A DNA stretch of 64,000 nt. It comes from Antedon mediterranea. Lineage: Eukaryota; Echinodermata; Crinoidea; Comatulida; Antedonidae. Below the pieces are notes generated by a model. That model was not told the DNA's origin, made no database searches, and was given only the letters and a program-made list of their open reading frames with translations. Of this stretch, positions 853 to 41,700 are shown piece by piece. A program made the position numbers and the translations under genes. Position 1 is the stretch's first letter, and each line of letters opens with the position of its first letter. The stretch is taken from contig NC_092676.1 of the NCBI RefSeq assembly GCF_964355755.1, forward strand, positions 16,040,288-16,104,287, written 5' to 3'.

Positions 853-980
853 CTGCAACAAGCATAAGTCAGGAGTGTCAGTGACAAACCAAGAATGGAA
901 AGGCCACATCCAATATACGAAATGTAAGAGAGGGCTAATTGATGCTCCTCGGGCAGCTCTGCCGTATCACCATATACATC
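853..980 (-). CDS. Adhesion GPCR exon 17: post-GPS stalk and TM1
   Basis: 128 nt with an AG acceptor (TTTTCTAG) and GT donor (GTAACT). It continues in phase 0 from the GPS exon as [14 protein letters not shown]. The hydrophobic segment [19 protein letters not shown] follows, which matches the TM1 pattern of adhesion GPCRs (L-x-x-I-S-x-I-G-C). Phase 2 at the end leaves an Arg codon open. The exon for TM2 was not recognised to its left. Confidence 0.85.
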
Positions 981-3900
981 CTAGAAAACAAAATGCATTT
1001 ATATTTCTCTGGTAAAGAAAATTGGTAGAAATTCATAATAATCAAGCAATATAAAGAGGACAATTGAATAAGCTTTGACGGGTTTATAACTGGAATGGAG
1101 GAGCCAAGATATCAGCTGCAATATACGTAGCTAGATGTCTATAAATAGCATCAGACACGGACTAATGCCTAGATATCTATAAATAGCCAAGACATCAGCT
1201 GCAATATACGTAGCTATAAGATGTCTATAAAATAAATAATAAACAACAGTATTTATATAGCGCCTAATGGATCACTGACCCCTCTAGGTGCATTACATTA
1301 GACCTTAACTAATGGTAATAAACTATCCCCCGCCGGTTCTATACATAGCATCAGACACGGACTAATGCCTAGATGTCTATAAATAGGCAAGATATCAGCT
1401 GCAATATACGTAGCTATAACATGTCTATACATAGCATCAGACACGGACTAATGCCTAGATGTCTATAAATAGGCAAGATATCAGCTGCAATATACGTAGC
1501 TATAACATGTCTATACATAGCATCAGACACGGACTAATGCCTAGATGTCTATAAATAACCAAGGTATCAGCTGCAATATACGTAGCTATAACATGTCTAT
1601 ACAGAGCATCAGACACGGACTAATGCCTAGATGTCTATAAATAGGCAAGATATTAGCTGCAATATACGTAGCTATAACATGTCTATACATAGCATCAGAC
1701 ACGGACTAATGCCTAGATGTCTATAAATAGGCAAGATATCAGCTGCAATATACGTAGCTATAACATGTCTATACATAGCATCAGACACGGACTAATGCCT
1801 AGATGTCTATAAATAGGCAAGATATCAGCTGCAATATACGTAGCTATAACATGTCTATACATAGCATCAGACACGGACTAATGCCTAGATGTCTATAAAT
1901 AACCAAGATATTAGCTGCAATATACGTAGCTATAACATGTCTATACATAGCATCAGACACGGACTAATGCCTAGATGTCTATAAATAGGCAAGATATTAG
2001 CTGCAATATACGTAGCTATAACATGTCTATACATAGCATCAGACACGGACTAATGCCTAGATGTCTATAAATAGGCAAGATATCAGCTGCAATATACGTA
2101 GCTATAACATGTCTATACATAGCATCAGACACGGACTAATGCCTAGATGTCTATAAATAGGCAAGATATTAGCTGCAATATACGTAGCTATAACATGTCT
2201 ATACATAGCATCAGACACGGACTAATGCCTAGATGTCTATAAATAACCAAGATATCAGCTGCAATATACGTAGCTATAACATGTCTATACATAGCATCAG
2301 ACACGGACTAATGCTTAGATGTCTATAAATAACCAAGATATTAGCTGCAATATACGTAGCTATAACATGTCTATACATAGCATCAGACACGGACTAATGC
2401 CTAGATGTCTATAAATAACCAAGATATTAGCTGCAATATACGTAGCTATAACATGTCTATACATAGCATCAGACACGGACTAATGCCTAGATGTCTATAA
2501 ATAGGCAAGATATTAGCTGCAATATACGTAGCTATAACATGTCTATACATAGCATCAGACACGGACTAATGCCTAGATGTCTATAAATAGGCAAGATATT
2601 AGCTGCAATATACGTAGCTATAACATGTCTATACATAGCATCAGACACGGACTAATGCCTAGATGTCTATAAATAACCAAGATATTAGCTGCAATATACG
2701 TAGCTATAACATGTCTATACATAGCATCAGACACGGACTAATGCCTAGATGCCTATAAATAGGCAAGATATTAGCTGCAATGTACGTAGCTATAACATGT
2801 CTATACATAGTATCAGACACGGACTAATGCCTAGATGTCTATAAATAACCAAGATATTAGCTGCAATATACGTAGCTATAACATGTCTATACATAGCATC
2901 AGACACGGACTAATGCTTAGATGTCTATAAATAACCAAGGTATCAGCTGCAATGTACGTAGCTAGATGTCTATAAATAGCAAAGCCACTAGTAGCTGCAA
3001 CCACATTTTGTAAGCTGTTTTCATAAATATTTCTCTGTTTTTTACACATAGCTCTAATTATTCATATAATGAAATCACTTACCATAAGTAAAGCAAAGTT
3101 TGTGAAATGGTTGCATTGACACGTTGTACTTGTATCATTTGTTGAATCAACCCAGCACCCATTAGTTGACCAACCTCCGATTCCTCCTGAAATTTTGGAT
3201 TGTAAAAGAAAATTGTTAAAATGAGCAACTGATTGCCATCTACAAAACTACCCCAATGCAAAAACCTTTACAAAATTGCTATTTTATAACATTACCGTTA
3301 GCAGTAAAATTCCAGAATACACATTTTGGATTTCCAACATTCTGAAATAACGAAAAATAATAATTCAAGTTAAACAAAAAACGAAACTGTATAATTCAAA
3401 GAAACGTTATTATTAGAATAAAAAACATTCTTGTCACTATTTTATGCAAGTGTACATTGTGCTTTACGAATGAAATAAAAACATGCACACAGTATCTTCA
3501 CCTAATATATCTATGGCATAAACACAGATTAAAAACTTACGTCTGTTTGTCTGTGAATAAGAGTTATAGAAATTGGCTCCGACAGATCCGTTATCTTCAA
3601 GTCCCCAATTGTAGCCGATATAATAAAACTGTTCAGTACGTTTGTTTGAATTGGTTCTTCAAAGGTTTCGTTTAAAAATTCATCTGTTGTCGAATTGGTG
3701 ATGTAAACTGGTTGATCTGTGAGATTCATGTTTGTATCCACAACTTCACCGATTACCTAAAACGAATAAGTACATCTGAATAAGAGATAGTATAATGACT
3801 AGAAGAGGAATAACTGGTAATAAAATAAAACCTAATTAGAAAAAAGAAAAACCAGCACTTCTGATTGACAATATTATTATATAAAACTACAAGTTACAAT

Positions 3901-6900
3901 ATTAAAAACATGACTATAAATGAATACTTTTTCAATACATAATAATTATTTTGTTATAAATAATTTTAACTTCGATTCAATTTTTTGTTAAAGATGAAAA
4001 CGTTCTCATTTACATAAAAGAACTTTGACAGCACTTACATCAAAGTAAACTGTGTCTGAAAAGATAACAAACTGGCATCTTGGTATCGGTCCGATTTGCT
4101 CGAATATAGACCTCGGCATAGTAACAGATGTAATATCACTCGCAATATCATCAATAGTAATATTGACAAATATATTTGCCTTTTATGAGAAAAAACATAG
4201 TGAGTATTATTACAACGAAAAGCAGCTGCTTATTACTATTTTGTCAACATATTTTTAACTGACGTCATATTTAAATGAATCAGTTTTAAACTTGTTTGTT
4301 TCACTTGCTCCATTTTATCCCAAGTAAAAAAATATATAGAAGCCTAATTTAACTCCAGTGGCCTTAGACAATGGCTTGTAATTTAGTATCGATACATACT
4401 TATAGTGCTAGCATACCTGTGAATCTGGTCCTCCAACAAAGACAACGTTTTCATCGAGTGTGCCATCAACATCAAGAACGGCAACATCAAAAGTCTTCGT
4501 AGAAACACCTAGGGTTGTATCATTTAAGATGACATCACGTGCAAACACATCGATGTTGTGTAATATTCTGTAAATATACATTTATTTAAAGTATACTTTT
4601 TCAGGCAATGTTTCGTTTATTTACAGATATCAGTATTGAGTGTCATATCACTAATAATATTTATTACACAATAGTTCATGCAGAATATCTTTCTTAGATC
4701 ATTTATCTAAGGCTGCTGAACTAATATTCCAGAATATTTTTCTCCGGAATAATGTGAAAATAACTGAATTGAGGAATGTATTGAGCAAAATATCAGTATT
4801 TGTGACAACCTTTCACCTGGGTCGTCGTCGTTTTACGAAAGATCGCCAATCATTTGGGAACGCAATGGAGAATAATATGCTAATATAAACGTCGCACACT
4901 CGAAAGCGGAGCAGACTACAGCCTCTCGTGGTAGAAAGATCTCAAGCATTTAACAACAGGATACACGGCGGTTTGTACTATTCATTATCATCATCACTTT
5001 GCCATTCAGTAGAACGAATACTGAACGACACGTGATACTTAATTAACCAATAAAATGGCAAAGATGGTGTGTTATAAACTTTGATGACGTACGAATTGCT
5101 GCTTTTCTTTGTGCAGCTTTTAGGCATACCTGGTACTGGATTGTGATTCTTCCTCGCCGTCATGCAGTACTTGCTGGTCTACATCTTCTGCCATTTGACT
5201 TGCACTTTCCATCACGTTCCCCATAACCGGTCTGCTAGAATTTTCATAAACAGCAATATTGTTTGCCAAGTTTTCCATTACCGTAACGACAATCTCGACG
5301 TCATCGGCCGTGAAGTCACCAGCAGAGGACGTCATATCCATCAGCATAGTAGAAAGTGGCAATGCACTTTCTGAAAAAAAAGTATAATAATTACCGATAC
5401 ACCACTGATGTAAAGTTGTTTGAAAACAATTTTTTAGGAAAAAAAAACTTTACTGTTGGCGCAATATATTGCGCCGACAGCATAGCATATTATGGCATAG
5501 CATATTATGCTATGCCACACCCATCGATTAACTTTGATCACCTTTGAACATATTGGTAGCTGCTCCAATATTTCTGTGTCGATACAAATTATCTGGTGTT
5601 ATGAAAGTTAGGCGCGGGATCCATCATCCGATTGTATGTATTTCTGATAGATGGAGAATATATGCTAATATAAACGTCGTCGCACACTCAGAAGCGGAGC
5701 AGACAACAGCCTCTAGTGGTGAAAAATCTCAAACATTCAACAACAAGATACACGACGTTTTGTACTATTCATTATCACCATCACTTATAAAAATATTCAT
5801 AATATGCATATTATTTTGTGCAAGTTTGACTTACCTGCAGTGACCTCTGTGGACACCAAAGCCTGCAAATCTCGTGTCAAGACGCTTTCGTAAGCACAAT
5901 TTGTGGTGTTCATCTCACTCCATTCTACCGCACCAGATTCCGATATGATCAAGCTGTACAGTACATATATTAATGATTTCAATTTTCTTTGCAAACTTAA
6001 AGATGTATTGTCCCTTTGACTAATTCTCCCCCCCCCCCATTTTTTTTTTATTTTGAAAAAAAGTGGGTAATTTTGAAGTATCATAATAGTTATTAACTTT
6101 CACCAAAAATTAGTCGAAAAAAAAAATAATTTAACCGAAATACAGATGTTTTTTTGTTCAAAAAATAACTTTGACTTCCAGTCAAAGTTTACAATTTAAA
6201 CATATCTCATAATGCAACGCGCTTGTTTGGCTACTCTGTATGCATAATCATAAATAACTTCCTCGCGATCTGTGTGAAACACCTTCTCAACCGCGACGAG
6301 TTGTAAACAATCCTAATTAGCATCATGCATAATGCATACTCACGGTTTAAAATCTTTGTTTACTTTCGCTTGCGACGATTTCCCAGACGAAATGTAATCT
6401 AATTAATTTACCTGTTAATTACGTAAACTTGTTGTTTTTGGCTCGAATTTTTGATTTTAATATTACTTTGATATGGCTAATTAAAATTTAGAATATTTTT
6501 TTTTTCATTTTTTGTGTTTCAAGGGACAATACATCTTTAACTTAGTAAAATGTTTTGCCAACACTTTACCCCTTACTGACGTACTCGTTGTTGGGACCCA
6601 TGACCTCCATATTTGATTTCCAAACTAGGTTTACCTGTAATTTGTTTTATCAACTTCTAGAAAGTACTGAGAATTTGGTACGATTTAAATTTAGAAAACA
6701 TCTCTGATTTATTTTGAAAGAATGAAATATAGAAATAGATATATTGGTGACAAAAAAAAAGGAGAAAGTATGCAACATTTTCGATGTTATAAATGAAAGA
6801 TTGAAAAGCAGAGGAAGAAAAACTAAAAGAATGTAAACGATAACGAAATACTATCTTCTGTAGATGTTTTCAGCTAATGGTGACATGGACACAATATAAG

Positions 6901-9900
6901 ACGAGAAGTAATAAAATAATTCTGAAAGAATTATATTTTAGGTTAATTGATAGATATGTATATTTAAACATTTGTATTGGTAGTACGTCATAGTTGTATT
7001 TACCATTTTCTTGTTGAAAAGTTGCCTGAGTTGTACGGACATTCGACTTTTGCTATGGTTTCGCCTTCAGTTTGTAGCCAAACAAATGTGCCCTTGAGAT
7101 CTGTCAACGTTTCACCTGGACATGTCTGCACTGTCTCTTGTCCAGATGTTTCATTAAAAAAATGAGTTGTTGAATTCTGAAGTGATGTGGTCATTAGAGT
7201 TGTTGAGGCAGTCGTATTATTCATTGATAGTGTGGTTGAAGAAGAATTAGTAAGAGTAGTTGACAATGATGGTTCTGTAGGTTCTGCCCCAGGCTGAGTA
7301 GAAAGTGGTTGTGAGGTAACATTACTTTCTTCTTCATCACTATCATCATCGTCATCATTATTTTCCCCACCATTACCACCACCACCATTACCACCACTAT
7401 TACCAGGACCAACAACATCACCTTCGCTGATGTCATCATCAAAATCGTCAGTGCAATTTAATCCAATTACATCTTCGAGTGTATGGTTGCAGGCGACATA
7501 AAGGAATGTACAGTTGACAGCAGTATCGTTGTTACCGGGAAGTTCACATGGTGACGCTGTGGTCGTCATAATAGGCGGTAAAGTTGTTAGCTCATTTACT
7601 AATAATATAAAAGAATTATAACATATATAAGTGTATGCTTTCTATATGATTAGTTATACTGAACGGAAAATGATATAATGGTGATAATGAACGGGTAGGC
7701 CTACTAATGAACGTTCAGGTTTTGTAAACATTTTTGAGAATTCAAAAAACAAAATATATAATGAATGTTTGTATTCGTTGAATTAAAATGAAGAAGATAT
7801 TTTATTCGTTGAAAGATTGACTGCTCTATTTAACAAGGCTCGGCATCGTTAAATAAAGCAGTCAACATTTGAAATATTCTCTTCATTTAACGGTACGGAT
7901 AAATGATTATTTGTATAATAATTTAAAAAGATTAAACAGTTAAATTAATAGTTAAACACAAATAAATAAAAATATCTCCGAGTACCAATCCTGGGCGGGT
8001 CTCTAACGAAAATAATATAGAATATTTATATTTAACAGCTCTATTTTATTGCATCAATATTTTAGATATTAATTTTTGAAATAATATCACAGTAAAGTTA
8101 TATGATATTCATTCGCTTTTTATTTAATTTAAATAATTAGGCCTTCAGTAGGATAATTGTAAAAGATAAATATTAGTAGAGATTCCACAAGCTGTTGCAG
8201 ACCACTGGCGTAAAGTTGCATTTTGTTGAATTCCAATAACTACCGGTAATTAACTGGAAACATTAAAACGAAAAAGGTGACGTAGTAATGCGTCATTAAA
8301 AACTGTAACAGACTGAATAGTCATCATGTGTGATGGGCTGGTGGCCGTTTAATTGCTTTATTTGTTTAGTTGCTTATTGTTTTTCTCTCATTAACCCTGA
8401 GGAAAGATTGTTTAGTTTCTTTCTGGTCGTTTTTACTTTTTCACTTTGATTTTTTGCTTTTTTTTTTAATCCAGCCACTGATACCTATTTTCTCTAGTAA
8501 TTTGGATTTATATTAGGCCTAATGTTAACAGTGAACATGTTACATTTCTCATAGACTTCCAAACTCCAAAACTTCCAAAAGCCTTTATTTTTTTGTATTT
8601 TTTTTTGTGTTTTGTATTAATATTTGTCCTCAGTGAGGAAATTCGGATTAGGCCCTCCACGGACCCACGGCAGCCAGCAGTGCAGCGCCTACCAGATTAG
8701 GCAATGAGAGTTAAAGCATCTTGCCTAAGGATGCAATTAGTATGGTACAGATAACCTCGAACCCATGCCTATCACATGCTAGTCCGATATTACCATTACA
8801 CCATCACTCTCCAGTATATACAGCACCCGCCACGATTTCTAGACGGTCTCCCATCCAGAACGCAACCGGGCCCAACGTTGCTTAACTTCGGTGATCTGAC
8901 GAGAACCGGTGTTTCAACGCAGTATGGTTTGTAGTAGTTTGACCCACTTATCATTCTTATTCAAGTTTATAATATCTTTGTATTTGGACATGTACAGTAG
9001 ATACAAGCTGCCCGATACCTACCTCCATATGCCTTCTCCAAATCATTACACACGCTTCCTTGGCAGCAGTAACGGCATACAGACGTTACGCCCGGGCTGT
9101 CCGAACAACTATTATAGTTTTCGTAAGTTTCGAACACGCATGAGCTGAGTTCTTGGCAACCTTTTGTTATAGTGTATACACCGTTGACGACAGAAATTTT
9201 ATTCTTACACGCCGTCTGGAAAAAGGTGAGAAGAAAAGTGTCATAATGTCATCAATCATGATATGATATTTTAATTGAAGTGTGTTTTTTTTTAACGAAC
9301 TTGTTCTCCTCTTTTTGCCAAGAATTTGTATTTCAATCAATTCAATTCATCGACATTTTTATTCCATAATCAAAATAAAAACATATACAAATACAATACA
9401 GATAATAAGATAATGGAATGGGATACAAAATAAGCACAAGTGCTTTAAGCATGTAACCCTAACAAAAAAGATCAAACAATTAGTACAAACAAAAAGAACA
9501 AACCAAAATAACATAATGTGATTTACTTAAGTATTTCTATTGTTATAATATTGCTTTAATCTCTGTTTAAACAAACTTAAAGTGGGGGATTGTTTTATAT
9601 AGTCTGTTAAATTATTCCAAATATGTGTTCCTGGTAGGAAATACATTGCTTTCCGACTTTGGTGCGTTTTAGTTGTGGACAGTAGTTTGACCTGTTTCTA
9701 GTTGAGTAATTATGGAATGAGGCAGATGTACTAAATAAGTTATTAAATGATTCAGGTAATAGATTATGTTTATATTGATACATAAATATAGCAGTGTGTT
9801 TCATATAAAGGTCAACAATATTTAATGTTTGGGTCGAAATAAAAAGTGGATGAGAAGGATGCATAAAATAAACATGACAAATATTTCTAAGTGCTTTTTT

Positions 9901-12900
9901 CTGGAGAATATGTATACGGTTTAAATTTGTAGCAGAAGTAGCACCCCATACTGTGATAGCATACGTTATTCTAGGTAATATAAGTGCATTGTATACCGTT
10001 AACAAGATTTTACTTGATAACATAGACTTCACTTTGTTTAAGACACCAATTATTCTAGAAATACTGTTTGCTACCTCATTTTTACATGAAAATTAAACGA
10101 TAAAGTTTCATCCAGAAATAAGCCTAGAAATTTAACTTCAGTAGCTTTTACAATACATTCATTTCCCATCCTCAATTCTTCTGAGGTAGTGTCAGCTGAA
10201 TTATTTCTAGCCTTAAATATAACATATTTTGATTTGTTTACATTTAGCGTTAATTTGTTAGCAATAAACCAATCCGAAAGTATAGATAACTCCTGGTTCA
10301 TTGTATCAAAAGCTTGACTAATATCATTGTGACTGTACTATAAAACACATTTGTGTCATCTGCATACATAATCATGTCTACATGGTAACATGCTAGACTA
10401 ATATCATTAATGAATATAAGAAATAATAATGGACCCAATATGGATCCCTGAGGAACTCCAGTGTTTACTGTCATTTTACTAGATGCAGTATTAACAATAA
10501 ATGTGTATTGTAGTCTTTTTTTAAGATAGTTTGAGAACCAGTTTAGCGGAACTCCTCTTACACCATAAAATCTTAACTTATCTAATAATATATCATGATC
10601 GATTGTATCAAACGCTTTTGATAAATCAAGGAAAACTCCTAGTGTGAAATCTTTATTCGCAATAGCGTTTGTGATTTTTTCAATCGATTGTATTAAAGCA
10701 TGACTAGTTGAATGGTGTTGTCTAAATCCATACTGTGTCTTACTCAGTACGTTATATTTTGAGAGGTAACAAATCGTTTGATCATACACAATCGTCTCAA
10801 ATATTTTGGAAAAAAGGGTAAATGGAAATAGGCCGATAATCATTTATATCTGAGATGTCACCATTCTTAAATACCGGGATAACTTTAGCAATTTTTATAT
10901 CAGCCGGGACACAGCCCGATGATAATGACGTATTAATAATATGCAATAAAGGTTTTAAAATAAACGGGGAAGCAGATTTTATGAGTTGGGCACTTATACC
11001 ATCATGGCCAGGAGAAGTATTCTTTGTTTTTTAAATATAGTGGTTAAGTTCATGTTCAGTAACAGGTTTAAAAAAAAATCGAAGAGGTAAAATTTCCCTT
11101 TAAGAAAGTTCTGTGGGTGATTTGATCATTTTGACATTCATGCCTAAATTTATTATTTAGTTTTTCTCCAATATTAATAAAAAAAAGAGTTGAATGCATC
11201 AGCTTTCTCATCCTTATCAGAGAAAGTCTCAGTACCCAATTTTATTTTTGTAGGCAAATTGGTTGTCTTTTTCCTACCCATTATATCATTTAGGATTGTC
11301 CACGTTTTTTTTAATATCTTGTTTATTTTGTTCAAACTGGACCATATAATATTCTTTTTTCCGATTTCTAATAGTAGTGGTTAACTTGTTTCTAAAATGT
11401 ATGTACGTGATTTTATTAGTAGTGGTGTTATTTTGTTTGTACTTTTTATATAATTTATGTTTTTGAGAGATAGCGCTGGCAATTTCAGCTGTGATCCAAG
11501 GAGATTTCAACTTGGTCGCCTTATTTCTAATTCGTTTTAAAGGGAAACAATTATCAATTGCTTTATTTAAAGTGTTTGTAACATTTTGATAAGCAACATT
11601 CGCATTATTTGAGGATAGCACATCATTCCACTGATTGCTTTGTAATTCTTGGAAAAAATACTCCGTTTGTTGAGGAGAGTATTTTCGTTATATACAAATC
11701 GAGGATATTGCTTATTATGTTTTTCCAAAGTATCTACACAGAATATTGGGAAGTGATCAGAAATATCAGTAATTAGTATTCCACTTTTAAGGGACGTAGT
11801 AAAAGAATCGATGTTTCAATAAATGTTATCAATTATTGAAGCACAATTATCGGATATTCTAGTAGGACTTTTTATGATTGGCTGAAATGACAAATATTGT
11901 GTCTAAGTGTGATTGGATAGTGTTGTCGGTAGATTGTTGGAGTAAGTTTATGTTATAGTCTCCCACAAGGTAAGCTTTCCTTTTTTCTAGATTAATCATT
12001 TGCATTACACATGTTAATTCATCATCAAACTGTTGCAAGGAACGTGAGGGTGGTCTATAAACTATACCACAAATAACATTATTTCCTGATTCTAACTCAA
12101 TCTCAATAAAAATAGTCTCTGCTTCAGTCATACAAGATGACAGATCATTTCTAATAATATATGTTAGTTTGTTGGTAACATAGAACGCTACCCCACCACC
12201 TCTCTTATCCTTCCTATCATTGTGAATCAAACTGTATCCTGGTAACTGGTATAGATTAATATTATCTTTTTCGGTTAACCAGGTTTCACTGAAGGCAATG
12301 ACGGAGAATAGTTTGAGATTAAGTCAAATTATTATTAACAACACTACGACAGTTTAGTCCAAATATAGAAAAGTTTGATGATAAATTAGAATGTTCAGTG
12401 AAGTTACAATATTCTATGCTCACATTTACATTATCAAAAAGGTCACATTTAAACATTTAAATTAGACAGAAAAGGAAATGACAAATAAATACAACCGAGC
12501 AAGCTGCTTACAGCAGATAATGGTTTCTGAACCGAATACGGTGATTTTAGGACAATTGAGTTAACACTATATAGCCCAAGTTAACAAGTATGTACAATAA
12601 ATTACAATATATACAATGTAATATGAATTGTTTTATCATGACATACCAACAACAACTAAACGACAGGCAATAAAACAATAATGATGATCATGGACGCCAA
12701 TTAAGTATTTGGTTAACTTAAACGATTTTGATCAATCTAACTCACCGATGTCCAGAATGTATTATTATGGCAAATTACTGGTGTGTCAAAGCAGGGAGTG
12801 GTCAAAGCATCACCGGTAAACAGCTACGTTGAAACGGTCTCACTTATTAATCACATCAGCCACTTAATGTTGTTATTATTTGTCATTATACATCACTAGT

Positions 12901-15900
12901 AAAGTACGGATAGTGTAACTTACATTTAGTTGTGTTGTGTTTCATTAAAATGATGTGTTTAACGTTTACGAGTTTGATCAACCCAGTAACTCATCGATGA
13001 ATTACCGGGAAACAACTACGTTGAAACTTACATCATCAACAGCCACTTAATTGTTGTTGGTATTTCTCATTATGTAACACTATCGTCGCACACCTGCCGT
13101 GGGTCACCTGATTAAAGCATGAATGGACAGAGATATCCAGAACATAACAGCCAGGTGCGCGACATAAACAAACAAACTGCGTTTATTTACATATAACGGT
13201 AGAAATACTACTATCTACAATCACATAATTAGTCTACGTTCTACAAGACTGCGGTAATGTAGGTATGAAATATAATTCATAAACATTAATTAATTGTGTT
13301 TAATTGAACATTAATTAATTTGGCTTAATGACTTAATTATAGTTATTTTAGTGGCTTGTATGGCTTACCGTCGATAAACAGTTGTGCATTTCTGAATACG
13401 GGCTTACGTTTTTCGGCATATGCCTGCGCCATAATTATAGATAATTCTCTCTTTTTCTTCATGTCCGCATCAGGTAAATCTTCAGTAATAAATACGTTTT
13501 GTGATTTACTTTTTAATTTTACTTTTCCTAGTTTTAGGACTTGGTTTCTTTGTGGACGGTACAGAAATTTAGATATTATATGCCTCGGTTTTTTATCTAA
13601 ACGGCGTTTCCCGGTGCGATGGCAATTTTCAATTTCGATGTCCTCGAGAGTCCGAGTTCTTCGCGTAGTACTTTTTGTAATAAGTCCTGGGTGTTTTCTG
13701 TAGCATTTTCTATAACTCCTCCAAACCTTAGATTAAAACTCCTACTGTATCTTTCTTGTTTTAGGATTGAATTTTCCATGTCCGCCATTTTATCCTGATA
13801 AGCCGCCATTTTGTTTTCATACTCCTCCATTTTCTTGATTTTATTTCCAATTAATCAACTTTCTACGCGTTTCTTGTCATTTTGAGCATGTCAAAAATTC
13901 CCATACGCGCGCGGTGCGCACGTAACGTTAAATACATACTTTTTTCGCGTGATTTATGTTTTGGCAGCCTTTTATAATAATTTTACCAACTTTTAAACAA
14001 TTTCGACTTAAAATTACGTCATATGAGCACGTCGAATTGAATAATTTGCGCACGTTTTTGATGAAAAAGTTCAAAAATTCGTCAAAATTATGCCTTTTTC
14101 GTCGCGTGGACGCGACTCTATAGTTCACTATGTCGGTCAGTCTGTCTGTCGGTCTGTCTGTCGGTCCGGTATCACTATGCATTGTAGCACGCGACTTAAT
14201 GGCTGTTGGCCTTGTTTTTATTTCATCCTTCGTTTTGTTAGTTGAATCATGCGCATATTCCACACTTTTTTCTAGATCTTTGACAGTTGTTTCCAGTTTG
14301 GTAAGACTTTTGTTGTAGTTTTTTTTTTATTTTCTAGGACTTTATCTAGTTTACCATTAAGTTGTTCTGATAGCCTACCTAGTTGATCGGCAAGCGTTTG
14401 AGTTTCCCCCTCTCGATCGCCGGAGGCTTCGATTGGATCATCTGCTTCTGGACTTTTGGAGGGTCTAGCTTTTCTTGTTAAGTCAATTGATTTAGTATTT
14501 GCCCTAGTAGGCCTATTATTCGCCATCATGGAGTCTTCTTTTAGTTAGGGTATACAACTTTTAAAAAAATAGTAGAGTTTGTTGGCTATATATTACCTTT
14601 AGTCTGAATTTAAGATCTTTTTCCTCTGCGTGTAAAAGTTAGGTGTTGTCTCTACTCGCGCATACCATTTGATGAACCAATGAAACATATTTGAATCTAT
14701 TCTTCCCATTGATAATAAATAATTACAAAATACTGGAAATAAATTAAATACCTAAAGTCTAATAAGAACAAAGTAAACATTGTGTAGGCCTTGGCTTAGA
14801 ATTATGTGTTTAATATAGCTATCGAACTAGACTGTAATATGCCTAATTGATGTGATGAGAGTATCATGCAAGGGTTTTTCTGTAATTTAGGCCTAAACAG
14901 TGTATATAAATTGAAGTTTAGAATCAAGAAAGTACGGTATATGAGCCATTAGTAAAGTTAACAATGATGGGAAACATTGTGGAACATGCCAATTAAGTCC
15001 AATATTCATACATTTAGGCCTAATCAAACGTTTTCAAATATACATGTAACTATGCAAAGTATGGAAATGGGAGATATTGTAAAGAATTCTCTAATAATTT
15101 ATAATTATTACATATAGTATAGGCGTACAGCAGTATTATACCGAACAGTAGTAAGTAGTAGTAAGTTTTGGCAAGGTTTAGGATGAGTATTTTCATACAT
15201 GCAGATGACACACCGTGGTTTCATATACATAATTGAAACACTATATGCACGCTACAAAACCAGAAAACATACAATCATGCTGCTACATATGTAATAGTTA
15301 TGTACCTGATACAACGGCGTATACGATGCGTGTAGAAGAATCAACGAGGAATATTCCCGTCAGACAGACCTCATATCAGAAATGGTAAAGTAATTATAAA
15401 GCGAATTGTATTCCATAGGCCTATATTAGGTCGTTACCCGCGAGGAATGTTATAAATGCGATATCTCAAGGAAAAAAAATGTGGGAGCTAGAATATGAAG
15501 TAAAGTATGATGTGGATATGTGGAGGAATGGAAACTTTTAAGTAACAACTTTTTATTTTATTTTATTTCCCAACCCAACCAACAGCAAAAGAAATTCACC
15601 AATAATTATATGTATGAAAAAAGTAGGCATACAGACTATTGGTATAATGAAAAAAGAGTTATACGGAAATTGACCGATTGTCGATGTAGTATAATAGGCC
15701 TACATTACAATATGCATAACAATAAATAACAGTAAATATAATACATTTTACTAATATATACTATGTGTATAGAATAGAACTGATGTTGGAATGGCTTGGA
15801 TTTATAAAGCCATATGTATAATTAAATTAGTTTACCTCTGAATCAGAACATTCACTAACTCCCTGTCGATTGCATTCTGCATTCGAACTTGCCCCCGAAC

Positions 15901-17889
15901 ACGTGTAGCAAGAAGGATCTGAAAATGTAAGTAATATAAACTATAAACTAGTTTGACAAAAAAGGGTGATGTGCCCAAATATGGTAGTGATATGACATCA
16001 TCATATCCATATATGGGCACATCACATTTTATAGTCACATAAACTTTGGTAGTGCACACAGAGCTTAATAGAACTTCTCCAAAACACTGGCAAACTCCGA
16101 GTTTTCTTACAAAGGTTTGCAAAGGTATACTAGTAGTGTTACTAAAACTTGAACAATAAAAATAACAAATAAAGCATCACTGAATTACGTTCACATACCG
16201 TACTAAAAGAAAGACATAGATTTAAATTCGAAGTAAATAATACAAATAGAGTAGACAAAACTGTTCTTACTTTGTAAACAGAACTCAGCGACGCTTATGT
16301 CCAAAGTTGCAGTTTGAGGCGGCGAGGAACATTTAGCGTTGGCGACAGTAGGGAGGTCTGCAGGAAACTTATTTAACAGCCAATTACGCATCCACAGCAT
16401 ATCACAATTACATACAAATAAGTTGCTTGCAAGATCCCTGCGAAACAAAAAAGAATAAGCCCTAATTGATTAATAACGTAATTTATAGTAAACATAAAAT
16501 ACAACTAAATAAGATTACAATGTTTACATGGATGATAAATAACACTTACAGTAACTTTAATTGAGAGAAGACGTTGAACAGACTTTCATCTAATGTAGTT
16601 AGACGATTATTGGTCAAAGATCTGAAAAAGGGTGTGATGGTAATAAAAACGATTACTTTAATTGTAATTAATAGTATTTAACTAAGCTAAATTAATTTAA
16701 CAAATTTATTGTAATAATGTGCCAATATCAATCCACAAAAATGTAATACTTACAGAGAGTGTAGGTTTACAAGAGGCTCAAACAAGGCACCCGTTAAATA
16801 ACGTGTTTCAATATTGTTTTCATTCAGGTTTCTGTATTTTAAGATAATTATAATATATTTCGTTATTTGTTTTTGTAACGGTTGAAAATGATTAAATAAA
16901 TATCAACTTATTAATGTTGGTTTTTACCGCGTGGGCTTATTGTTGCAAACTTATCACATGTTCCAGTTTATGTATGCATATTTATATTACTTATCGAATC
17001 TATCAATGTTGGTTTAATATTTAATACTTACTTAATATTCCCTACAATAAAAAAAAAACAAACAAAAACAACAAAATTGTAATAAAGGCAATTCTAAGTG
17101 AAAATGTGTTGTTGTTCATTACTTCATCTAAAATATCCACGCCTTATCCTCCTGTTTCGAAATCCTTCAAGTTATGCCATTGTAATATAATTGTTTGTTC
17201 CAATCCACCCATAAAAGGTATTTTATGGACAATATAATAATAAGTAACTGCGATACAGAATTTAATTCAATTAAAAATAATTTTATTTCTGAAAGTAAAA
17301 ACAATAAAATCTCCTACAATAATACAGTTATAACAACAATAAGTTTTGACAAAAAGTCACCCCACTGTTGATGAATGTGGATGTTATACTTACATCTGAA
17401 CCAATTCTTGAAGGTTTGCAAAGGCATCCACTGGAATCTTTTGCAATTCATTATTATTCAGTTTTCTACAGTAAAGAAATTAAGTAATATATGTACATTT
17501 TTTGACACGGTATCATATCATTTCAATATACACAATAAATTAATTTAAAATAACTTTGCACACTAATATCGACTCCTACTTCGAACACACAAAACACGAT
17601 AATTGAAAAAGTGTTTGTTCAATCTAGATTCAGAAAAGGTTCAATTACAACAAAATTGAAGCACTTACAAAATTTGAGTATTATTTGGAATACCGTCTGG
17701 TACGCTTATTAAGCCTCGATTCGAACAATCTACAGTCAGCCGGCCATCTTCTGTAGTACAGGAACAGACACCTTCCACAGCACAAACATCTTGCGTTTTA
17801 ATATTTTCCACAAAACACAATAAAACTATAAATCCTACGATGTATGTTATTATATGTGGTGGATGCATAATGTCTATCGTAGAAGTCAT
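853..17889 (-). CDS. Adhesion GPCR, LRR + Ly6/uPAR + HRM + GAIN/GPS + 7TM (3' part beyond window)
   Basis: Predicted cell-surface receptor. Coding exons, high to low coordinate: 17889-17669, 17465-17395, 17041-17032 (10-nt microexon, tentative), 16831-16754, 16621-16550, 16437-16271, 15918-15836, 9215-9023, 7598-7004, 5953-5835, 5370-5130, 4567-4417, 4179-4039, 3756-3541, 3341-3296, 3186-3083, 980-853. Every junction has AG/GT borders and the phases chain without a stop, giving about 878 residues up to the end of TM1. Modules in order: signal peptide, LRRNT, LRRs, LRRCT, Ly6/uPAR fold, acidic and Thr/Ser-rich linker, HRM, GAIN, GPS, TM1. The closest known plan is the ADGRA group (LRR-Ig-HRM-GAIN-7TM), with Ly6/uPAR here in the place of Ig. 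TM2-TM7 were not found in bases 1-852 and should lie to the left. Ligand and G protein cannot be inferred. The single-gene reading is strong from phase continuity; cDNA would settle it. Confidence 0.85.
1090..2990. repeat. 86-bp tandem satellite array (19 regular units)
   Basis: The marker TCAGACACGG occurs at 1351 and at 2899, exactly 18 x 86 bp apart. Intervening units have the same spacing, so there are 19 units without indels. Units differ only by scattered substitutions (gatatcagct/gatattagct, aggcaag/aaccaag, gcctag/gcttag). An outlying partial unit at 1100-1230 is separated from the array by an inserted fragment. Each unit contains two ATGTCTATA words. The array sits inside the intron between the GPS exon and the TM1 exon of the adhesion GPCR. 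Confidence 0.95.
1228..1343 (-). mobile_element. LINE/SINE 3'-tail fragment inside the 86-bp array
   Basis: About 115 bp with an AATAAATAAT end and TATATAGCGCCTAA. The same GCGC(C)TA tail motif occurs at 47800-47870 and near the LINE end at 50660-50690. It interrupts the satellite unit between ATGTCTATAA and ATACATAG. It looks like the 3' tail of an L2/CR1-type non-LTR element that inserted into the satellite before or during its amplification. Confidence 0.5.
3083..3341 (-). CDS. Adhesion GPCR exons 15-16: GPS motif
   Basis: Exon 3341-3296 gives [12 protein letters not shown]. Exon 3186-3083 gives [12 protein letters not shown], then [15 protein letters not shown]. Together they hold the four Cys and two Trp of a GPCR proteolysis site (C-x-F-W ... 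W-x3-GC ... C-x-C-N-H). The expected cleavage tripeptide is H-F-T (consensus H-[LIM]-[ST]). Phe at the second position is uncommon, so autoproteolysis is plausible but not assured. The following residues TNFALLM would be the tethered agonist (Stachel). Confidence 0.9.
3541..5953 (-). CDS. Adhesion GPCR exons 10-14: end of HRM and GAIN domain
   Basis: Exon 5953-5835 completes the HRM (Cys codon split over the intron, then W-S-E and NTTNC). Exons 5370-5130 (helical, [16 protein letters not shown]), 4567-4417 ([21 protein letters not shown]), 4179-4039 ([24 protein letters not shown]) and 3756-3541 ([25 protein letters not shown]) read as the helical subdomain A and then the beta-sandwich subdomain B of a GAIN domain. 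The phases are 1, 2, 0, 0, 0 and close exactly. The SxxMPxxLF-like segment just before the strands is typical of GAIN domains. Confidence 0.83.
4867..5004 (+). repeat. Dispersed repeat, copy 1 (about 138 bp)
   Basis: Shares long runs with 5651-5785 in the same orientation: TATGCTAATATAAACGTCG, GCGGAGCAGAC, TTGTACTATTCATTATCA. The two copies lie in neighbouring introns of the adhesion GPCR. Family unknown. Confidence 0.8.
5651..5785 (+). repeat. Dispersed repeat, copy 2 (about 135 bp)
   Basis: Second copy of the repeat at 4867-5004, about 85-90% similar by eye. Differences include an extra CGT in the CGTCGTCGC stretch and AGTGGTGAAAAA for CGTGGTAGAAAG. Confidence 0.8.
5997..6540. mobile_element. 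Non-autonomous DNA transposon with 20-bp terminal inverted repeats
   Basis: The 544-bp stretch begins TTAAAGATGTATTGTCCC and ends with its exact reverse complement (GGGACAATACATCTTTAA). The interior has no long ORF. It carries a C-run followed by a T-run (about 6029-6050). It lies in the intron between the two HRM-coding exons. A TTA/TAA end or duplication is compatible with several superfamilies, so I do not assign one. Confidence 0.8.
7004..7598 (-). CDS. Adhesion GPCR exon 9: acidic, Ser/Thr-rich linker and start of HRM
   Basis: The longest coding exon of the gene (595 nt). It begins [19 protein letters not shown] with several N-glycosylation sequons. A run of Gly/Asn and then Asp/Glu ([22 protein letters not shown]) follows, then a mucin-like Thr/Ser stretch. 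It ends with the first part of a hormone-receptor motif: [16 protein letters not shown] and [13 protein letters not shown]. The linker probably is an O-glycosylated spacer holding the LRR/Ly6 head away from the membrane-proximal domains. The CAC/CAT-rich plus strand at 7330-7440 is the DNA side of the Asp/Gly codon runs. Confidence 0.85.
7783..7890. repeat. Palindromic hairpin element
   Basis: GATTGACTGCTCTATTTAAC at 7815-7834 pairs with GTTAAATAAAGCAGTCAAC at 7848-7866. An outer arm (TTAAAATGAAGAAGATATTT with AAATATTCTCTTCATTTAA) extends the fold. It is probably a small palindromic MITE in the intron between the Ly6/uPAR and linker exons. Confidence 0.7.
8605..8935 (-). mobile_element. Composite SINE with 5S rRNA-like head, tRNA-like middle and unique tail
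   Basis: On the minus strand a near full-length 5S rRNA-like sequence (8935-8819) is followed at once by a tRNA-like segment (about 8812-8745, box B GGGTTCGAGG). Next comes a body containing CCTTAGGCAAGATGCTTTAA and an A-rich tail. A 5S-then-tRNA head is the plan known from AmnSINE1 of the Deu-SINE superfamily. I cannot confirm a Deu domain here by eye. It lies in the intron just downstream of the second Ly6/uPAR exon. Confidence 0.7.
8819..8935 (-). rRNA. 5S rRNA-like sequence (SINE head or pseudogene)
   Basis: About 117 nt matching the 5S plan end to end on the minus strand: ACCATACTGCGTTGAA, GTCAGATCACCGAAGTTAAG, GGATGGGAGACCG and a GGGTGCTGTA end. The internal promoter blocks (box A AGTTAAGCAACG, box C GATGGGAGACCG) are recognisable but differ from consensus. 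No T-run terminator follows; a tRNA-like segment does. That favours a SINE head over a functional 5S gene. Confidence 0.75.
9023..9215 (-). CDS. Adhesion GPCR exon 8: second half of Ly6/uPAR domain
   Basis: 193 nt, phase 0 in and phase 1 out. The reading is [12 protein letters not shown], then a KGC...SSC segment, and it ends [11 protein letters not shown]. The last motif, C-C-x4-C-N, is the hallmark C-terminus of Ly6/uPAR domains. The phase-1 end (GGA G) completes a Val codon with the first two bases of the exon at 7598, which supports the link to the GPCR ectodomain and not to a separate GPI-anchored Ly6 protein. No hydrophobic GPI signal follows. Confidence 0.8.
9607..11621 (-). pseudogene. 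LINE ORF2, reverse transcriptase and C-terminal parts
   Basis: From 11621: a linker ([19 protein letters not shown]). From 10843: RT with [40 protein letters not shown] and catalytic YADD at 10366-10355. Then [13 protein letters not shown] and [10 protein letters not shown] (10301-10071). Finally, in a shifted frame, [13 protein letters not shown] and [13 protein letters not shown] (10032-9607). At least three frame changes separate the blocks, so no single protein is encoded. Confidence 0.88.
11859..12360 (-). pseudogene. LINE ORF2, AP-endonuclease part
   Basis: Fragments [11 protein letters not shown], then (after an in-frame stop) [13 protein letters not shown], then [16 protein letters not shown] and [11 protein letters not shown]. 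These are the N-x-RS, ETWL and GDYN signatures of an apurinic endonuclease domain that nicks target DNA. A stop and frame changes break the reading. Confidence 0.8.
12808..13090. repeat. Two imperfect copies of a ~90-bp unit between LINE ORF1 and ORF2
   Basis: ACCGGTAAACAGCTACGTTGAAAC (in part) with CAGCCACTTAATGTTGTTATTATTTGTCATTAT at about 12812-12890 recurs at about 13005-13077 as a diverged copy (ACTACGTTGAAAC, CAGCCACTTAATTGTTGTTGG). The offset is about 195 bp. It may be the inter-ORF/5' ORF2 control region of the LINE or an older insertion. Confidence 0.6.
13350..14529 (-). pseudogene. LINE ORF1 (coiled coil + C-terminal domain), disrupted
   Basis: The N-terminal part (14529-14272) is charged with a heptad-like stretch ([20 protein letters not shown]). 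A one-base shift then continues the coil ([15 protein letters not shown]). A 370-bp insertion interrupts it, after which 13830-13597 resumes with the coil and NLRFGGV. The end (about 13600-13350) reads [18 protein letters not shown] and LFIDGKPYK, the typical C-terminal domain of L1-type and related ORF1 proteins. It would bind element RNA; as it stands it cannot be made. Confidence 0.75.
13846..14215. mobile_element. Short element with (NGTC)n microsatellite, inserted in LINE ORF1
   Basis: Flanked by similar 14-bp words, CTTGATTTTATTTC (13834-13847) and CTTGTTTTTATTTC (14211-14224), likely a target-site duplication of the ORF1 sequence. The element contains a GTCGCGTGGACGCGAC palindrome, CTATAGTTCACTATGTCGGTC and a GTCTGTCTGTCGG run. 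The same order recurs on the other strand at 18600-18781. Confidence 0.6.
15836..15918 (-). CDS. Adhesion GPCR exon 7: first half of Ly6/uPAR (three-finger) domain
   Basis: 83 nt between AG and GT borders, encoding [15 protein letters not shown] then [12 protein letters not shown]. The opening C-Y-x-C plus the spaced Cys that follow are the start of a Ly6/uPAR fold. The exon joins the LRRCT exon in phase 1 and the next exon (9215-9023) in phase 0. The second half of the fold lies 6.6 kb away, across an intron holding a LINE. Confidence 0.8.
15941..16066. mobile_element. Palindromic MITE, family P1, copy C
   Basis: Contains TAGTTTGACAAAAAAGG, GATGTGCCCAAATATGG, CATATATGGGCACATCAC and ends CACACAGAGCTTA. 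The left terminus is degraded. Other copies are at 37466-37586, 46178-46361 and 62937-63100. It lies in the intron before the first Ly6/uPAR exon. Confidence 0.75.
16271..17889 (-). CDS. Adhesion GPCR exons 1-6: signal peptide, LRRNT, LRRs, LRRCT
   Basis: Exon 1 (17889-17669) starts at an ATG followed by a hydrophobic stretch ([15 protein letters not shown]) and a Cys cluster (CAVEGVCSC then DCSNRGL) typical of an N-terminal LRR cap. A second in-frame Met lies 7 residues on, so the exact start is open. LRR exons follow: 17465-17395 ([11 protein letters not shown]), 16831-16754 ([12 protein letters not shown]) and 16621-16550 ([15 protein letters not shown], exactly 72 nt, the usual size of one LRR exon). 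Exon 16437-16271 finishes the last repeat ([16 protein letters not shown]) and gives the C-terminal cap, with Cys pairs CNC and KCSSPP...FC. The phase from 17395 (phase 1) to 16831 (needs phase 2) closes only if 10 nt are added; 17041-17032 supplies them. A pyrimidine-rich AG at about 17924 suggests a 5'-UTR exon further upstream. Confidence 0.87.
17032..17041 (-). CDS. Candidate 10-nt microexon in the LRR block
   Basis: On the minus strand the bases GGAATATTAA are preceded by a T-rich tract ending ATTGTAG and followed by the strong donor GTAAGTATT. Including these 10 nt converts the phase-1 end of the exon at 17395 to the phase 2 needed by the exon starting at 16831. It yields a leucine-rich-like join (LVRWNIKNLNENN). 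Omitting it gives an immediate TAA stop at the junction. A missed larger exon in the same intron is the alternative, but I saw none. Confidence 0.5.
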
Positions 17890-39569: not shown

Positions 39570-41700
39570 TCATGTCTGGTCATATAAAATAAGGTCAAAC
39601 TTGACCACTACTTCGCCCGTCGATACTTCATGTAAGAGTAATCGTTTTGTAATCGGTCCTTTCCCGTAATTTTCCTTTTTGATATCTGCTATTCGAACTT
39701 CTGTTCTTCCCAGAAAATCTAAAATAACAAACCAAATAATTAATAATTGTAATATTTCAGTTTAAAAACTACAACATTACATTGTTTTGATTAACATTTG
39801 TTTCATGTGAATGAGTAATGAATGATGTACAGTAATACAGACTATTTGCAAAGAGTATCAGTAAAACAAACTCTTAATATGATTAAGATACAGGTAGGCC
39901 TATCTAACTACACTACACTATAATACAAAGAAAAAATACCATTATAATCTTTTTGCTTAAGTCAAGATACAGTAGTTAGGCAGTGCTTAAGTAAAAAACT
40001 GAAGCCTATAATTTCATCTTAAGGAATAAGCTTTGTCATCATTTGTCAAGAAAGAGTAATTTTGATTAATCAGACCCCATGTATACAATATAAACTGCAT
40101 ACACAGATGGTAGGATATATACGATTTACGATCCTCGCAGCGGTAGTCATGTGATGCAGTTTCAACCAATCACGTTCACGTATTTACATAGGCTGTGTAA
40201 TATAAGATGGTATTGCAGTGTACTGTACTACTAGTATACTACTGTATATAAATACTATGTATTTCAGATACAACAGTAGGCCTAATTCATTTTGAATTAA
40301 GAGAACAAACACACTAATAAATATATGAAAGAACCCAGAAACTGAGTGAAGTACTTGGCAAAATATTGCCACACAGAGGGTATATGTTTATATTTCGGAT
40401 CTTGTTAAAAGAAAACACATTTTTCTTTTTGTAGAAAGATAACTTAAAAATTGTAGGCACTATTGTGCTAATCAACAAACAAACAAAACAAGTACTATAC
40501 TTCATGAATAAATGAACGTTAAATGAAAAATTATTAAAAGTGAATGATTGAAATAGACACCTACCATCAGGAGAGAGGAAGTCTTTATCATAGACTGTTA
40601 AACATAGCACATCTTGGTTCAAATCTCTCACAATAAACTGCATATTATAGTTCCATTTCGGGTTCAATGTGTCTGGAATAAAACGTGTACGGTTCTCCTC
40701 ACCTCCCATACTAACCTCACAATATGGGTCAGCACGACCTTCAATAAAATGTAATGTCAAATATTATGTGTCAATAATCAGTAAAACTAAGAGAGAAATT
40801 AATTTGCTAATAAAATGCATACAAACATTCAAACATTGATAAAACTGTTGAAATATATATTTAAAAAGTCTGTAACAGCAGGACAATAAGTACCTATTTA
40901 AATAACTTTATTCCAAAATATTAGAAAATTGCACAAAAAAAGGCAACCACAACAAGTGAAGCTTGGTTGGCATACAGTAACTAAAACGAACAATAGCTTG
41001 GGTTAATAATTAATTAACTAATTAACAAATTTAACTAATGATACTGTATGTTTATACTGGGATTTTATAGTTTCAAATGAAAATTGTCCAAGTACACAAT
41101 TTATTATGAAAATGTTCATAAAAAATGGGTAGGGTGTGAAATATATAATTGTTAACTGTAATTTGATTGTAAGTATTTTAATCATTGATAAAGACAACTC
41201 GCATTCCCTTACCAGTAACAGAGTTTGATGGCTTAAGATCAGCGCCCTCAATAATCACGACAAGCAAACGTCCAATTCCCTTGCTTCGCATTGAACGTAC
41301 TAAAACAGAGAATAATTAAGAGAGATTTACATAACACAAAAGAAGAAAGGTAATCATGATCATAATCTTTCTATAACACAGAATGGGTTTATTCTTCTCT
41401 GTAAATATTTACTTGTTTTAGATTTAAAAATGTTATTTCATACGCATCTAAAAGTGGGTAAACTCAACCAATTACAGGATGGATAACCTATTTTCTAATT
41501 TATTGAAAAGAGTGGTGAGTTAAAACCCTCTTACAGTGGTCAGGATTGAACACTGTCAATCAAGTATATTAGCCACCAAGTTACAGCTTCACTAAATCAC
41601 TAGTTTACAATATTTACCTCTTTGGGCTTTCTCTCGCTTCTTCTTTTCTGTTTCAATTGAGTGTTTTGAAGCATTTTCAATTTGTTTGATCCATTTATTT
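39570..41700 (-). CDS. Intersectin exons: post-PH helix and C2 domain, stop
   Basis: Exon 41700-41618 (KKKREKAQR linker), 41299-41213 ([19 protein letters not shown]), 40738-40565 ([42 protein letters not shown]) and 39718-39570 ([32 protein letters not shown], then TGA). Asp residues in DPY and YDKD are placed for Ca2+/lipid binding as in C2 domains. Confidence 0.94.

What the first reader, a model, noticed from the sequence alone, without database searches (positions are those of the whole stretch)
853..17889. Adhesion GPCR whose ectodomain is LRR - Ly6/uPAR - mucin-like linker - HRM - GAIN
Seen: seventeen exon blocks on one strand whose splice phases chain perfectly from a signal peptide to TM1. 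A C-Y-x-C...C-C-x4-C-N three-finger domain sits between LRRCT and HRM. Known: ADGRA receptors have LRR-Ig-HRM-GAIN; I know of no described adhesion GPCR with a Ly6/uPAR module. Inference: domain replacement or shuffling created a lineage-specific receptor. Ly6 folds commonly bind other receptors, so the head may combine two protein-recognition modules.
Basis: partly seen in the sequence, partly recalled or inferred. Interest (0 to 1): 0.88.

Follow-up and report, generated by a model that had tools for sequence, protein, structure and literature searches.

The report
Adhesion receptor with three-finger (Ly6) domain
One 20-exon animal gene appears to encode a cell-surface adhesion receptor whose outer part joins a leucine-rich repeat domain to a snake-toxin-like (Ly6) domain; the pairing looks real and unusual, but similar starfish receptors have been mentioned in print since 2022.

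Summary
A single minus-strand gene chains through 16 exons in the window and 4 just outside it. It encodes 1147 aa: signal peptide, capped LRRs, Ly6/uPAR (LU) domain, acidic and S/T-rich linker, divergent HRM, GAIN/GPS with an HF^T site, and a complete 7TM. LU is supported by Pfam on the domain alone (25.0 bits, cut-off 21.2; 19.7 in the whole protein), by LYPD6 as best PDB relative (7e-5) and by its cysteines. LU sits on two exons with phases 1-0-1, like a shuffled cassette; other LU genes in this genome share the acceptor phases. No start exon with a one-piece signal peptide was found between LU and HRM.

Two readings need correction. Ly6 plus adhesion GPCR is already in print: starfish LyAr2/LyAp2 (PMC9410279, PMC11595613). 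And this is probably not an ADGRA receptor with its Ig swapped: an LRR-Ig-HRM-7TM gene exists separately on C4, and the window 7TM scores closest to ADGRG2/G6/G4.

Transcripts and orthology to LyAr2 could not be tested; the three-finger fold test was inconclusive. Verdict: real; new member of a known kind; moderate interest, mainly as a case of LU moving as an exon cassette.

The parts
17669..17889 (-). Exon 1: start codon, signal peptide, LRR N-terminal cap
   Evidence: Open frame and GT donor; LRRNT E 0.0001, 22.3 bits, below cut-off 25.8; hydrophobic core
17394..17465 (-). Exon 2: one leucine-rich repeat, phase 2-2
   Evidence: LRR_8
16754..16831 (-). Exon 3: one leucine-rich repeat, phase 2-2
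16550..16621 (-). Exon 4: one leucine-rich repeat, phase 2-2
16271..16437 (-). Exon 5: last repeat and cysteine-rich C-terminal cap, phase 2-1
   Evidence: PDB LRR relatives
15836..15918 (-). Exon 6: first half of the Ly6/uPAR (LU) domain, phase 1-0
9023..9215 (-). Exon 7: second half of the LU domain, phase 0-1
7004..7598 (-). Exon 8: acidic and S/T-rich linker, then first part of the HRM-like domain
5835..5953 (-). Exon 9: rest of the HRM-like domain
5130..5370 (-). Exon 10: GAIN subdomain A region
4417..4567 (-). Exon 11: GAIN region
4039..4179 (-). Exon 12: GAIN region
3541..3756 (-). Exon 13: GAIN subdomain B region
3296..3341 (-). Exon 14: start of the GPS motif
3083..3186 (-). Exon 15: GPS core with CNHF^TNFALLM
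   Evidence: GPS 6e-16; alignment to ADGRG6
853..980 (-). Exon 16: rest of the tethered-agonist stretch and TM1; TM2-TM7 follow outside the window in L002

Best explanation
The locus is a single intact gene for an adhesion GPCR whose signalling half is closest to the ADGRG2/G4/G6 group and whose ligand-binding head was built by exon shuffling: an LRR domain, a LYPD6-like three-finger (LU) domain inserted as a phase-1/phase-1 pair of exons, and a flexible acidic, glycosylation-prone stalk. Most likely mechanism: the LRR-LU head binds a partner on another cell or in the matrix; the stalk carries the head away from the membrane; the GAIN domain cuts itself at HF^T (after residue 826); pulling or removal of the head uncovers TNFALLMDVYG..., which acts as tethered agonist on the 7TM. 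Shown here: gene structure, domain order, cleavage motif, agonist-like sequence, complete 7TM. Inferred: expression, folding, cleavage, ligand binding, force activation, G-protein coupling, and that shuffling put the LU there. If it is the counterpart of starfish LyAr2, it would work on coelomocytes and coelomic epithelium, where LyAr2 mRNA was mainly found (PMC11595613, passages).
For: Phase-compatible model of 20 exons; Pfam domains; LU best PDB relatives LYPD6 7e-5 and LYPD6B 0.0028, with 11 cysteine columns invariant among window LU, LYPD6, LYPD6B and one LU of the same genome; LU phases 1-0-1 fit the two-exon, phase-1-flanked layout of LU genes (PMC6600238, passages), and the acceptor phases recur in the other LU exons read; between exons 7 and 8, 0 of 3 start codons with a signal-like core have any GT of the needed phase, and 0 of 1 between exons 8 and 9, while the true exon 1 is found as control; 7TM closest to ADGRG2, G6, G4 and GPS region closest to ADGRG6; GPS reads CNHF-T, in line with the H-X-S/T motif named in the abstract of PMC13062082 (listing); starfish reports of LU in annotated adhesion GPCRs.
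Against: No transcript or protein data. Intron 6, which splits the LU domain, is 6620 bases and holds a retroelement. Pfam scores for HRM and GAIN are below their cut-offs, and the three-finger family is below its cut-off in whole-protein context. AlphaFold on exon 7 alone was poor (pLDDT 49). The reverse search with human ADGRG2 is nearly tied: adding exon scores by hand, with partly overlapping stretches, the window gene gets about 152 bits and two C1 genes about 144 each. The codon-position signal of constraint is weak.
Confidence: 0.82

Rival explanations
1. Two neighbouring genes: a secreted or membrane-tied LRR-LU protein (exons 1-7) and a separate HRM-GAIN-7TM receptor (exons 8-20) that only happen to be phase-compatible.
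For: No transcript evidence; a 1424-base intron lies between exons 7 and 8. A scrambled duplicate array at C7:2.285-2.325 Mb shows pieces of exons 8-16 and no LRR or LU match.
Against: No start codon with a one-piece signal-like core and a GT of the needed phase in that gap (0 of 3; the stricter scan, which would miss 7 of this gene's 19 donors, gave 0 of 2). A signal peptide split over two exons would escape both scans. Reading on past exon 7 gives only a short tail (...[19 protein letters not shown]) without a GPI-type hydrophobic end. The array pieces start inside exon 8, so they do not mark a gene border. Starfish have LU inside annotated adhesion GPCRs.
Confidence: 0.1
2. An ADGRA-type receptor (LRR-Ig-HRM; layout recalled) in which LU replaced the Ig domain.
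For: LRR and HRM flank the LU as they flank Ig in ADGRA; the HRM's best relative elsewhere in the genome is that of the C4 gene (E 0.011 genome-wide; 8.8e-7 in a 16-kb test set in which 1 of 5 HRM loci matched).
Against: The C4 gene still has an Ig region (Ig_3 1.4e-6, 29.1 bits against cut-off 30); the window 7TM and GPS are closest to ADGRG receptors. No ADGRA 7TM is among the PDB rows shown, so the comparison is indirect, and a duplicate ADGRA gene that later changed is not excluded.
Confidence: 0.05
3. The cysteine-rich exons 6 and 7 are not a three-finger domain but another cysteine-rich insert.
For: Whole-protein Pfam score 19.7 bits is below the 21.2 cut-off; no confident model.
Against: Domain-alone score above cut-off; LYPD6 as best of the PDB sequences; cysteine pattern and shared intron phases with other LU genes.
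Confidence: 0.03

Closest known systems
Starfish LyAr2 (XP_033635706), XP_033635539.1 (Asterias rubens) and LyAp2 (Acanthaster planci)
   Same: One LU domain in the extracellular part of a GPCR-like protein; LyAr2 and LyAp2 are annotated as parts of adhesion GPCRs, with LU closer to LYPD6 than to Lynx2 by BLAST in the 2022 paper (PMC9410279; PMC11595613; passages)
ADGRG2, ADGRG4, ADGRG6
   Same: Closest 7TM sequences in the PDB; ADGRG6 closest for the GPS region
   Different: LRR-LU head; no CUB, pentraxin or SEA domain was called in the window protein (the ADGRG6 layout is recalled); reverse best hit only marginal
ADGRA receptors
   Same: LRR before HRM and GAIN (layout recalled); similar HRM in the C4 gene
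   Different: LU in place of Ig; 7TM scores not ADGRA-like as judged from the C4 gene; that gene is separate in the genome
LYPD6 / LYPD6B
   Same: LU cysteine pattern and best PDB scores
   Different: Those are small proteins without a 7TM (recalled); here LU is inside a receptor
Amphioxus adhesion GPCRs with Kringle, SMB, SRCR and other domains (PMC2246102)
   Same: Adhesion GPCR heads with added cysteine-rich modules, for which the authors suggest domain shuffling
   Different: No LU domain in the passages read; 'uPAR' and 'Ly-6' do not occur in the held text

Membership tests
Adhesion GPCR | 7TM of the secretin/adhesion type | tested here: met
   7tm_2 3.9e-46; TM1-TM7 in exons 16-19
Adhesion GPCR | GPS motif with H-X-S/T cleavage site | tested here: met
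   GPS 6e-16; CNHF-T at residues 823-827
Adhesion GPCR | GAIN domain | tested here: inconclusive
   12.7 bits, below 26.5, E 0.087, but over profile positions 5-208 of 210 and directly before the GPS
Adhesion GPCR | Autoproteolysis and tethered agonism | not testable with these tools
   Needs expression
LU / three-finger domain | Conserved cysteine pattern ending in CC-x4-CN | tested here: met
   11 invariant cysteine columns in a 4-sequence alignment with LYPD6, LYPD6B and one LU of the same genome
LU / three-finger domain | Profile score above curated cut-off | tested here: met
   Toxin_TOLIP 25.0 against 21.2 on the domain alone, but 19.7 in the whole protein; UPAR_LY6_2 19.7 against 31.5
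LU / three-finger domain | Two exons flanked by phase-1 introns | tested here: met
   Phases 1-0-1; rule from PMC6600238, which puts the inner intron at the tip of loop 2, whereas here it lies just before a conserved cysteine
LU / three-finger domain | Three-finger fold | tested here: inconclusive
   Exon 7 alone, single sequence, pLDDT 49
ADGRA | Ig domain between LRR and HRM (recalled) | tested here: not met
   LU there instead; no Ig called at E up to 1
ADGRG2/G4/G6 group | Closest 7TM | tested here: met
   G2 208.5, G6 193.2, G4 192.6, D1 155.1, L3 139.6 bits; G1 124.2, G5 103.7 and G3 96.9 score below D1 and L3
ADGRG2/G4/G6 group | Reciprocal best match | tested here: inconclusive
   About 152 against 144 bits, added by hand over exons with overlap; the best single stretch is in a C1 gene (81 bits)
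Starfish LU-GPCR (LyAr2/LyAp2) | LU domain in an adhesion GPCR ectodomain, LU closest to LYPD6 | tested here: met
   papers
Starfish LU-GPCR (LyAr2/LyAp2) | Sequence orthology | not testable with these tools
   Starfish sequences not held

The most novel reading that the evidence does not exclude
In this lineage the LU domain is a truly mobile exon module: the same phase-1/phase-1 cassette has been dropped into an adhesion GPCR between LRR and HRM and, in another gene (L005), beside an S/T-rich stretch and a PAN domain, making composite receptors in which a LYPD6-like finger domain works together with an LRR in the head of a self-cleaving mechanosensor.
Probability: 0.3. Interest if true: 0.55.

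Novelty: new member of a known kind. Interest (0 to 1): 0.42.

Why it matters
A 2019 review (PMC6600238, passages) calls LU a proto-module found in foreign protein settings in only a few proteins. A full gene structure showing LU as a phase 1-1 exon pair inside an LRR adhesion GPCR, with relatives of matching exon phases in the same genome, gives a concrete case for testing LU mobility. It also defines a receptor with two candidate protein-binding heads and a tethered-agonist-like sequence.

Tried and rejected
ADGRA with Ig swapped: lowered strongly after finding the separate gene on C4. Two-gene reading: lowered after the start-exon scans. The scrambled array on C7 as a working paralog or as a gene-border marker: rejected, since in the stretches read its pieces are out of order, the exon 9 copy has an in-frame stop, the first HRM cysteine is changed, and the pieces begin inside exon 8. 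Naming the organism: 10,000 of 13,000 bases of contig C18 are N and repeat, not a mitochondrial genome; a paper search for a 354 Mb echinoderm genome gave nothing. The profile match A1 against A2 is not used, because both alignments contain the window sequence. HRM alone against the PDB: 3 matches at E up to 10, a coronavirus spike chain first (0.028), then BAI3 (0.16), then another spike chain (1.3); not significant for HRM, and the spike matches are taken as chance. HRM in the whole protein was not called by Pfam at E up to 1, nor was the window found in the genome search with the HRM family at E up to 1. The Pfam UPAR_LY6 family found nothing over its cut-off in the genome, the window included. 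AlphaFold on exon 7 alone was uninformative, so no fold search was run. The codon-position test of window against array gave only weak support (position 2 against 3 p 0.014; 1+2 against 3 p 0.086; 2 against intron p 0.15; one stretch, L019, tested). That LU in adhesion GPCRs is unpublished is not claimed: it is in print. An LRR together with an LU in one such receptor was not seen in what I read or in the listings, several of which show only the top rows (for example 12 of 135).

Full report
Observation. The window gene lies on the minus strand of contig C7 in an unnamed 354 Mb genome. I read the sequence, fetched the DNA beyond the window's low end (read), picked exons by eye at GT-AG sites and joined them by script. 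Sixteen exons fall between 17889 and 853, and four more in L002 complete the 7TM. All 19 junctions are phase-compatible and give 1147 aa without a stop. The last exon, behind a 60-base intron, is the least certain.

Domains. Pfam on the whole protein gives 7tm_2 3.9e-46, GPS 6e-16, LRR_8 7.6e-11, LRRNT 0.0012 (below cut-off) and the three-finger family Toxin_TOLIP 0.0015 (19.7 bits, cut-off 21.2). On the LU domain alone Toxin_TOLIP reaches 25.0 bits, above its cut-off; UPAR_LY6_2 reaches 19.7 of 31.5. In the PDB the LU domain has 4 matches at E up to 1: LYPD6 twice (7e-5, 9e-5), LYPD6B (0.0028) and SLURP1 (0.46). Aligned with LYPD6, LYPD6B and one LU of the same genome, 11 cysteine columns are invariant. 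HRM is 16.4 bits (cut-off 26.2) and GAIN 12.7 (cut-off 26.5), both weak but in the right order. The HRM's nearest relative in the genome, apart from itself and array copies, is the HRM region of a C4 gene: E 0.011 genome-wide; the smaller E of 8.8e-7 is for a 16-kb test set in which 1 of 5 HRM loci matched. Residues 296-455 hold 28% Ser+Thr and 10 NXS/T sites, an Asp/Glu/Gly run, and 4 cysteines of unassigned fold near the start (no Pfam match for the first 70 residues).

One gene or two. A first scan asked for start codons with a hydrophobic core and a GTRAG donor of the needed phase: 0 of 2 candidates between exons 7 and 8, 0 of 1 between exons 8 and 9, no candidate in intron 5, and 1 of 10 in the retroelement-bearing intron 6, that one inside the reverse transcriptase frame. 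That donor rule fits only 12 of this gene's 19 donors, so I repeated it with any GT: 0 of 3 between exons 7 and 8 (24 ATGs in all), 0 of 1 between exons 8 and 9 (20 ATGs), no candidate in intron 5 (10 ATGs), and the true exon 1 found as control; intron 6 was not rescanned. A signal peptide split over two exons would be missed. The window has no N. This favours one gene, but no transcript was available.

LU as a cassette. LU exons 6 and 7 have phases 1-0-1. A review states that LU genes use two exons for the mature domain, generally flanked by phase-1 introns (PMC6600238, passages). A search of the genome with the window LU gave 8 matches at E up to 1: 2 in the window and 6 at five other places, the weakest at E 0.5. 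I fetched those five. Read by eye, 4 of 4 second-half exons begin at a phase-0 acceptor just before the same cysteine, and 2 of 2 first-half exons begin at a phase-1 acceptor; one first-half donor would be a GC donor. Comparing, none of the five places has a listed GPS match downstream on its strand within 2 Mb (the GPS list is a lower bound: 150 of 180 candidates scored, 139 matches).

Which receptor group. The window 7TM against the PDB scores ADGRG2 208.5 bits, ADGRG6 193.2, ADGRG4 192.6, ADGRD1 155.1, ADGRL3 139.6, then G1 124.2, with G5 and G3 lower (60 of 75 matches shown). The GAIN/GPS region is best with ADGRG6 (2.1e-20). A reverse search with human ADGRG2 letters copied gave exon scores that I added by hand, with overlap: about 152 bits for the window gene and about 144 for each of two C1 genes; the single best stretch belongs to a C1 gene. 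So the reverse best hit is marginal, and I do not file the gene as an ADGRG member. The genome also holds what I call an ADGRA-type gene (layout recalled) at C4:2.497-2.514 Mb: one weak LRR match (E 0.20), an LRRCT that matches LGI1 (5.9e-6), Ig (Ig_3 29.1 bits, cut-off 30), HRM (24.9 bits, cut-off 26.2), GPS over its cut-off (44 bits) and a 7TM whose best PDB scores are L3 62, D1 56, and G2 31 (TM1 missing from the query). Its exons were joined by eye. So the window gene is not that receptor with Ig replaced.

Mechanism. The GPS reads [11 protein letters not shown] with cleavage expected after residue 826, aligned to ADGRG6 CNHF-THFGVLM. The usual reading for adhesion GPCRs is that the GAIN domain cleaves itself and the new N-terminus acts as tethered agonist; that is inference here. 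Ligands of the LRR-LU head and G-protein choice are unknown; Gs coupling as in ADGRG2/G6 is recalled and speculative.

Literature. PMC9410279 (2022; outline with abstract and passages) reports starfish LU domains LyAr2 and LyAp2 that the NCBI annotator places in adhesion GPCRs, closer by BLAST to LYPD6 (48-55% similarity) than to Lynx2. PMC11595613 (2024; passages including the abstract) reports two GPCR-like A. [quoted passage not shown] PMC2246102 (passages) reports several new cysteine-rich domains in amphioxus adhesion GPCRs. The 2026 aGPCR review PMC13197933 (passages of the held first 300,000 characters) has no occurrence of 'Ly6' or 'uPAR' there. PMC4839075 and PMC6337849 (passages) gave background on LU genes; PMC13409769 (passages) did not name the LU-GPCRs.

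Limits. No RNA data, no named eukaryote genomes to compare, no starfish sequences, and a structure model of exon 7 alone with pLDDT 49.

Noticed in passing
C7:2284500-2325500 of the genome (L004, L018, L019 and edges of L021 read; 2304301-2318999 not fetched): Tandem array with 11 listed copies each of a GPS piece and a TM1 piece of this gene and 4 HRM pieces; in the stretches read, pieces are out of order and the exon 9 copy has an in-frame stop. No LRR, LU or TM2-TM7 match is listed there (lists partly capped).
   Followed up: partly
window 1052-2971: Minisatellite with 86-base spacing (21 registered overlapping copies of a 172-base double unit) in the intron between the GPS exon and the TM1 exon.
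   Followed up: no
window 9607-12323: Retroelement in intron 6 on the gene's strand; reverse transcriptase 6e-25 at 10298-10843, with further open frames nearer exon 6.
   Followed up: no
window 40314-40763 and 61440-61943: C2 domain (8.3e-14) and SH3 domain (2.4e-16) exons on the minus strand, perhaps parts of one intersectin-like gene (recalled domain order).
   Followed up: no
L005 (C11:8692300-8694600): LU second-half exon followed by an S/T-rich stretch and a PAN domain exon, possibly a second LU domain combination.
   Followed up: partly
genome-wide: Large adhesion GPCR repertoire with clusters on C9 near 18.6-19.0 Mb, C3 near 33.3-33.5 Mb and C1 near 6.6-7.3 Mb.
   Followed up: no
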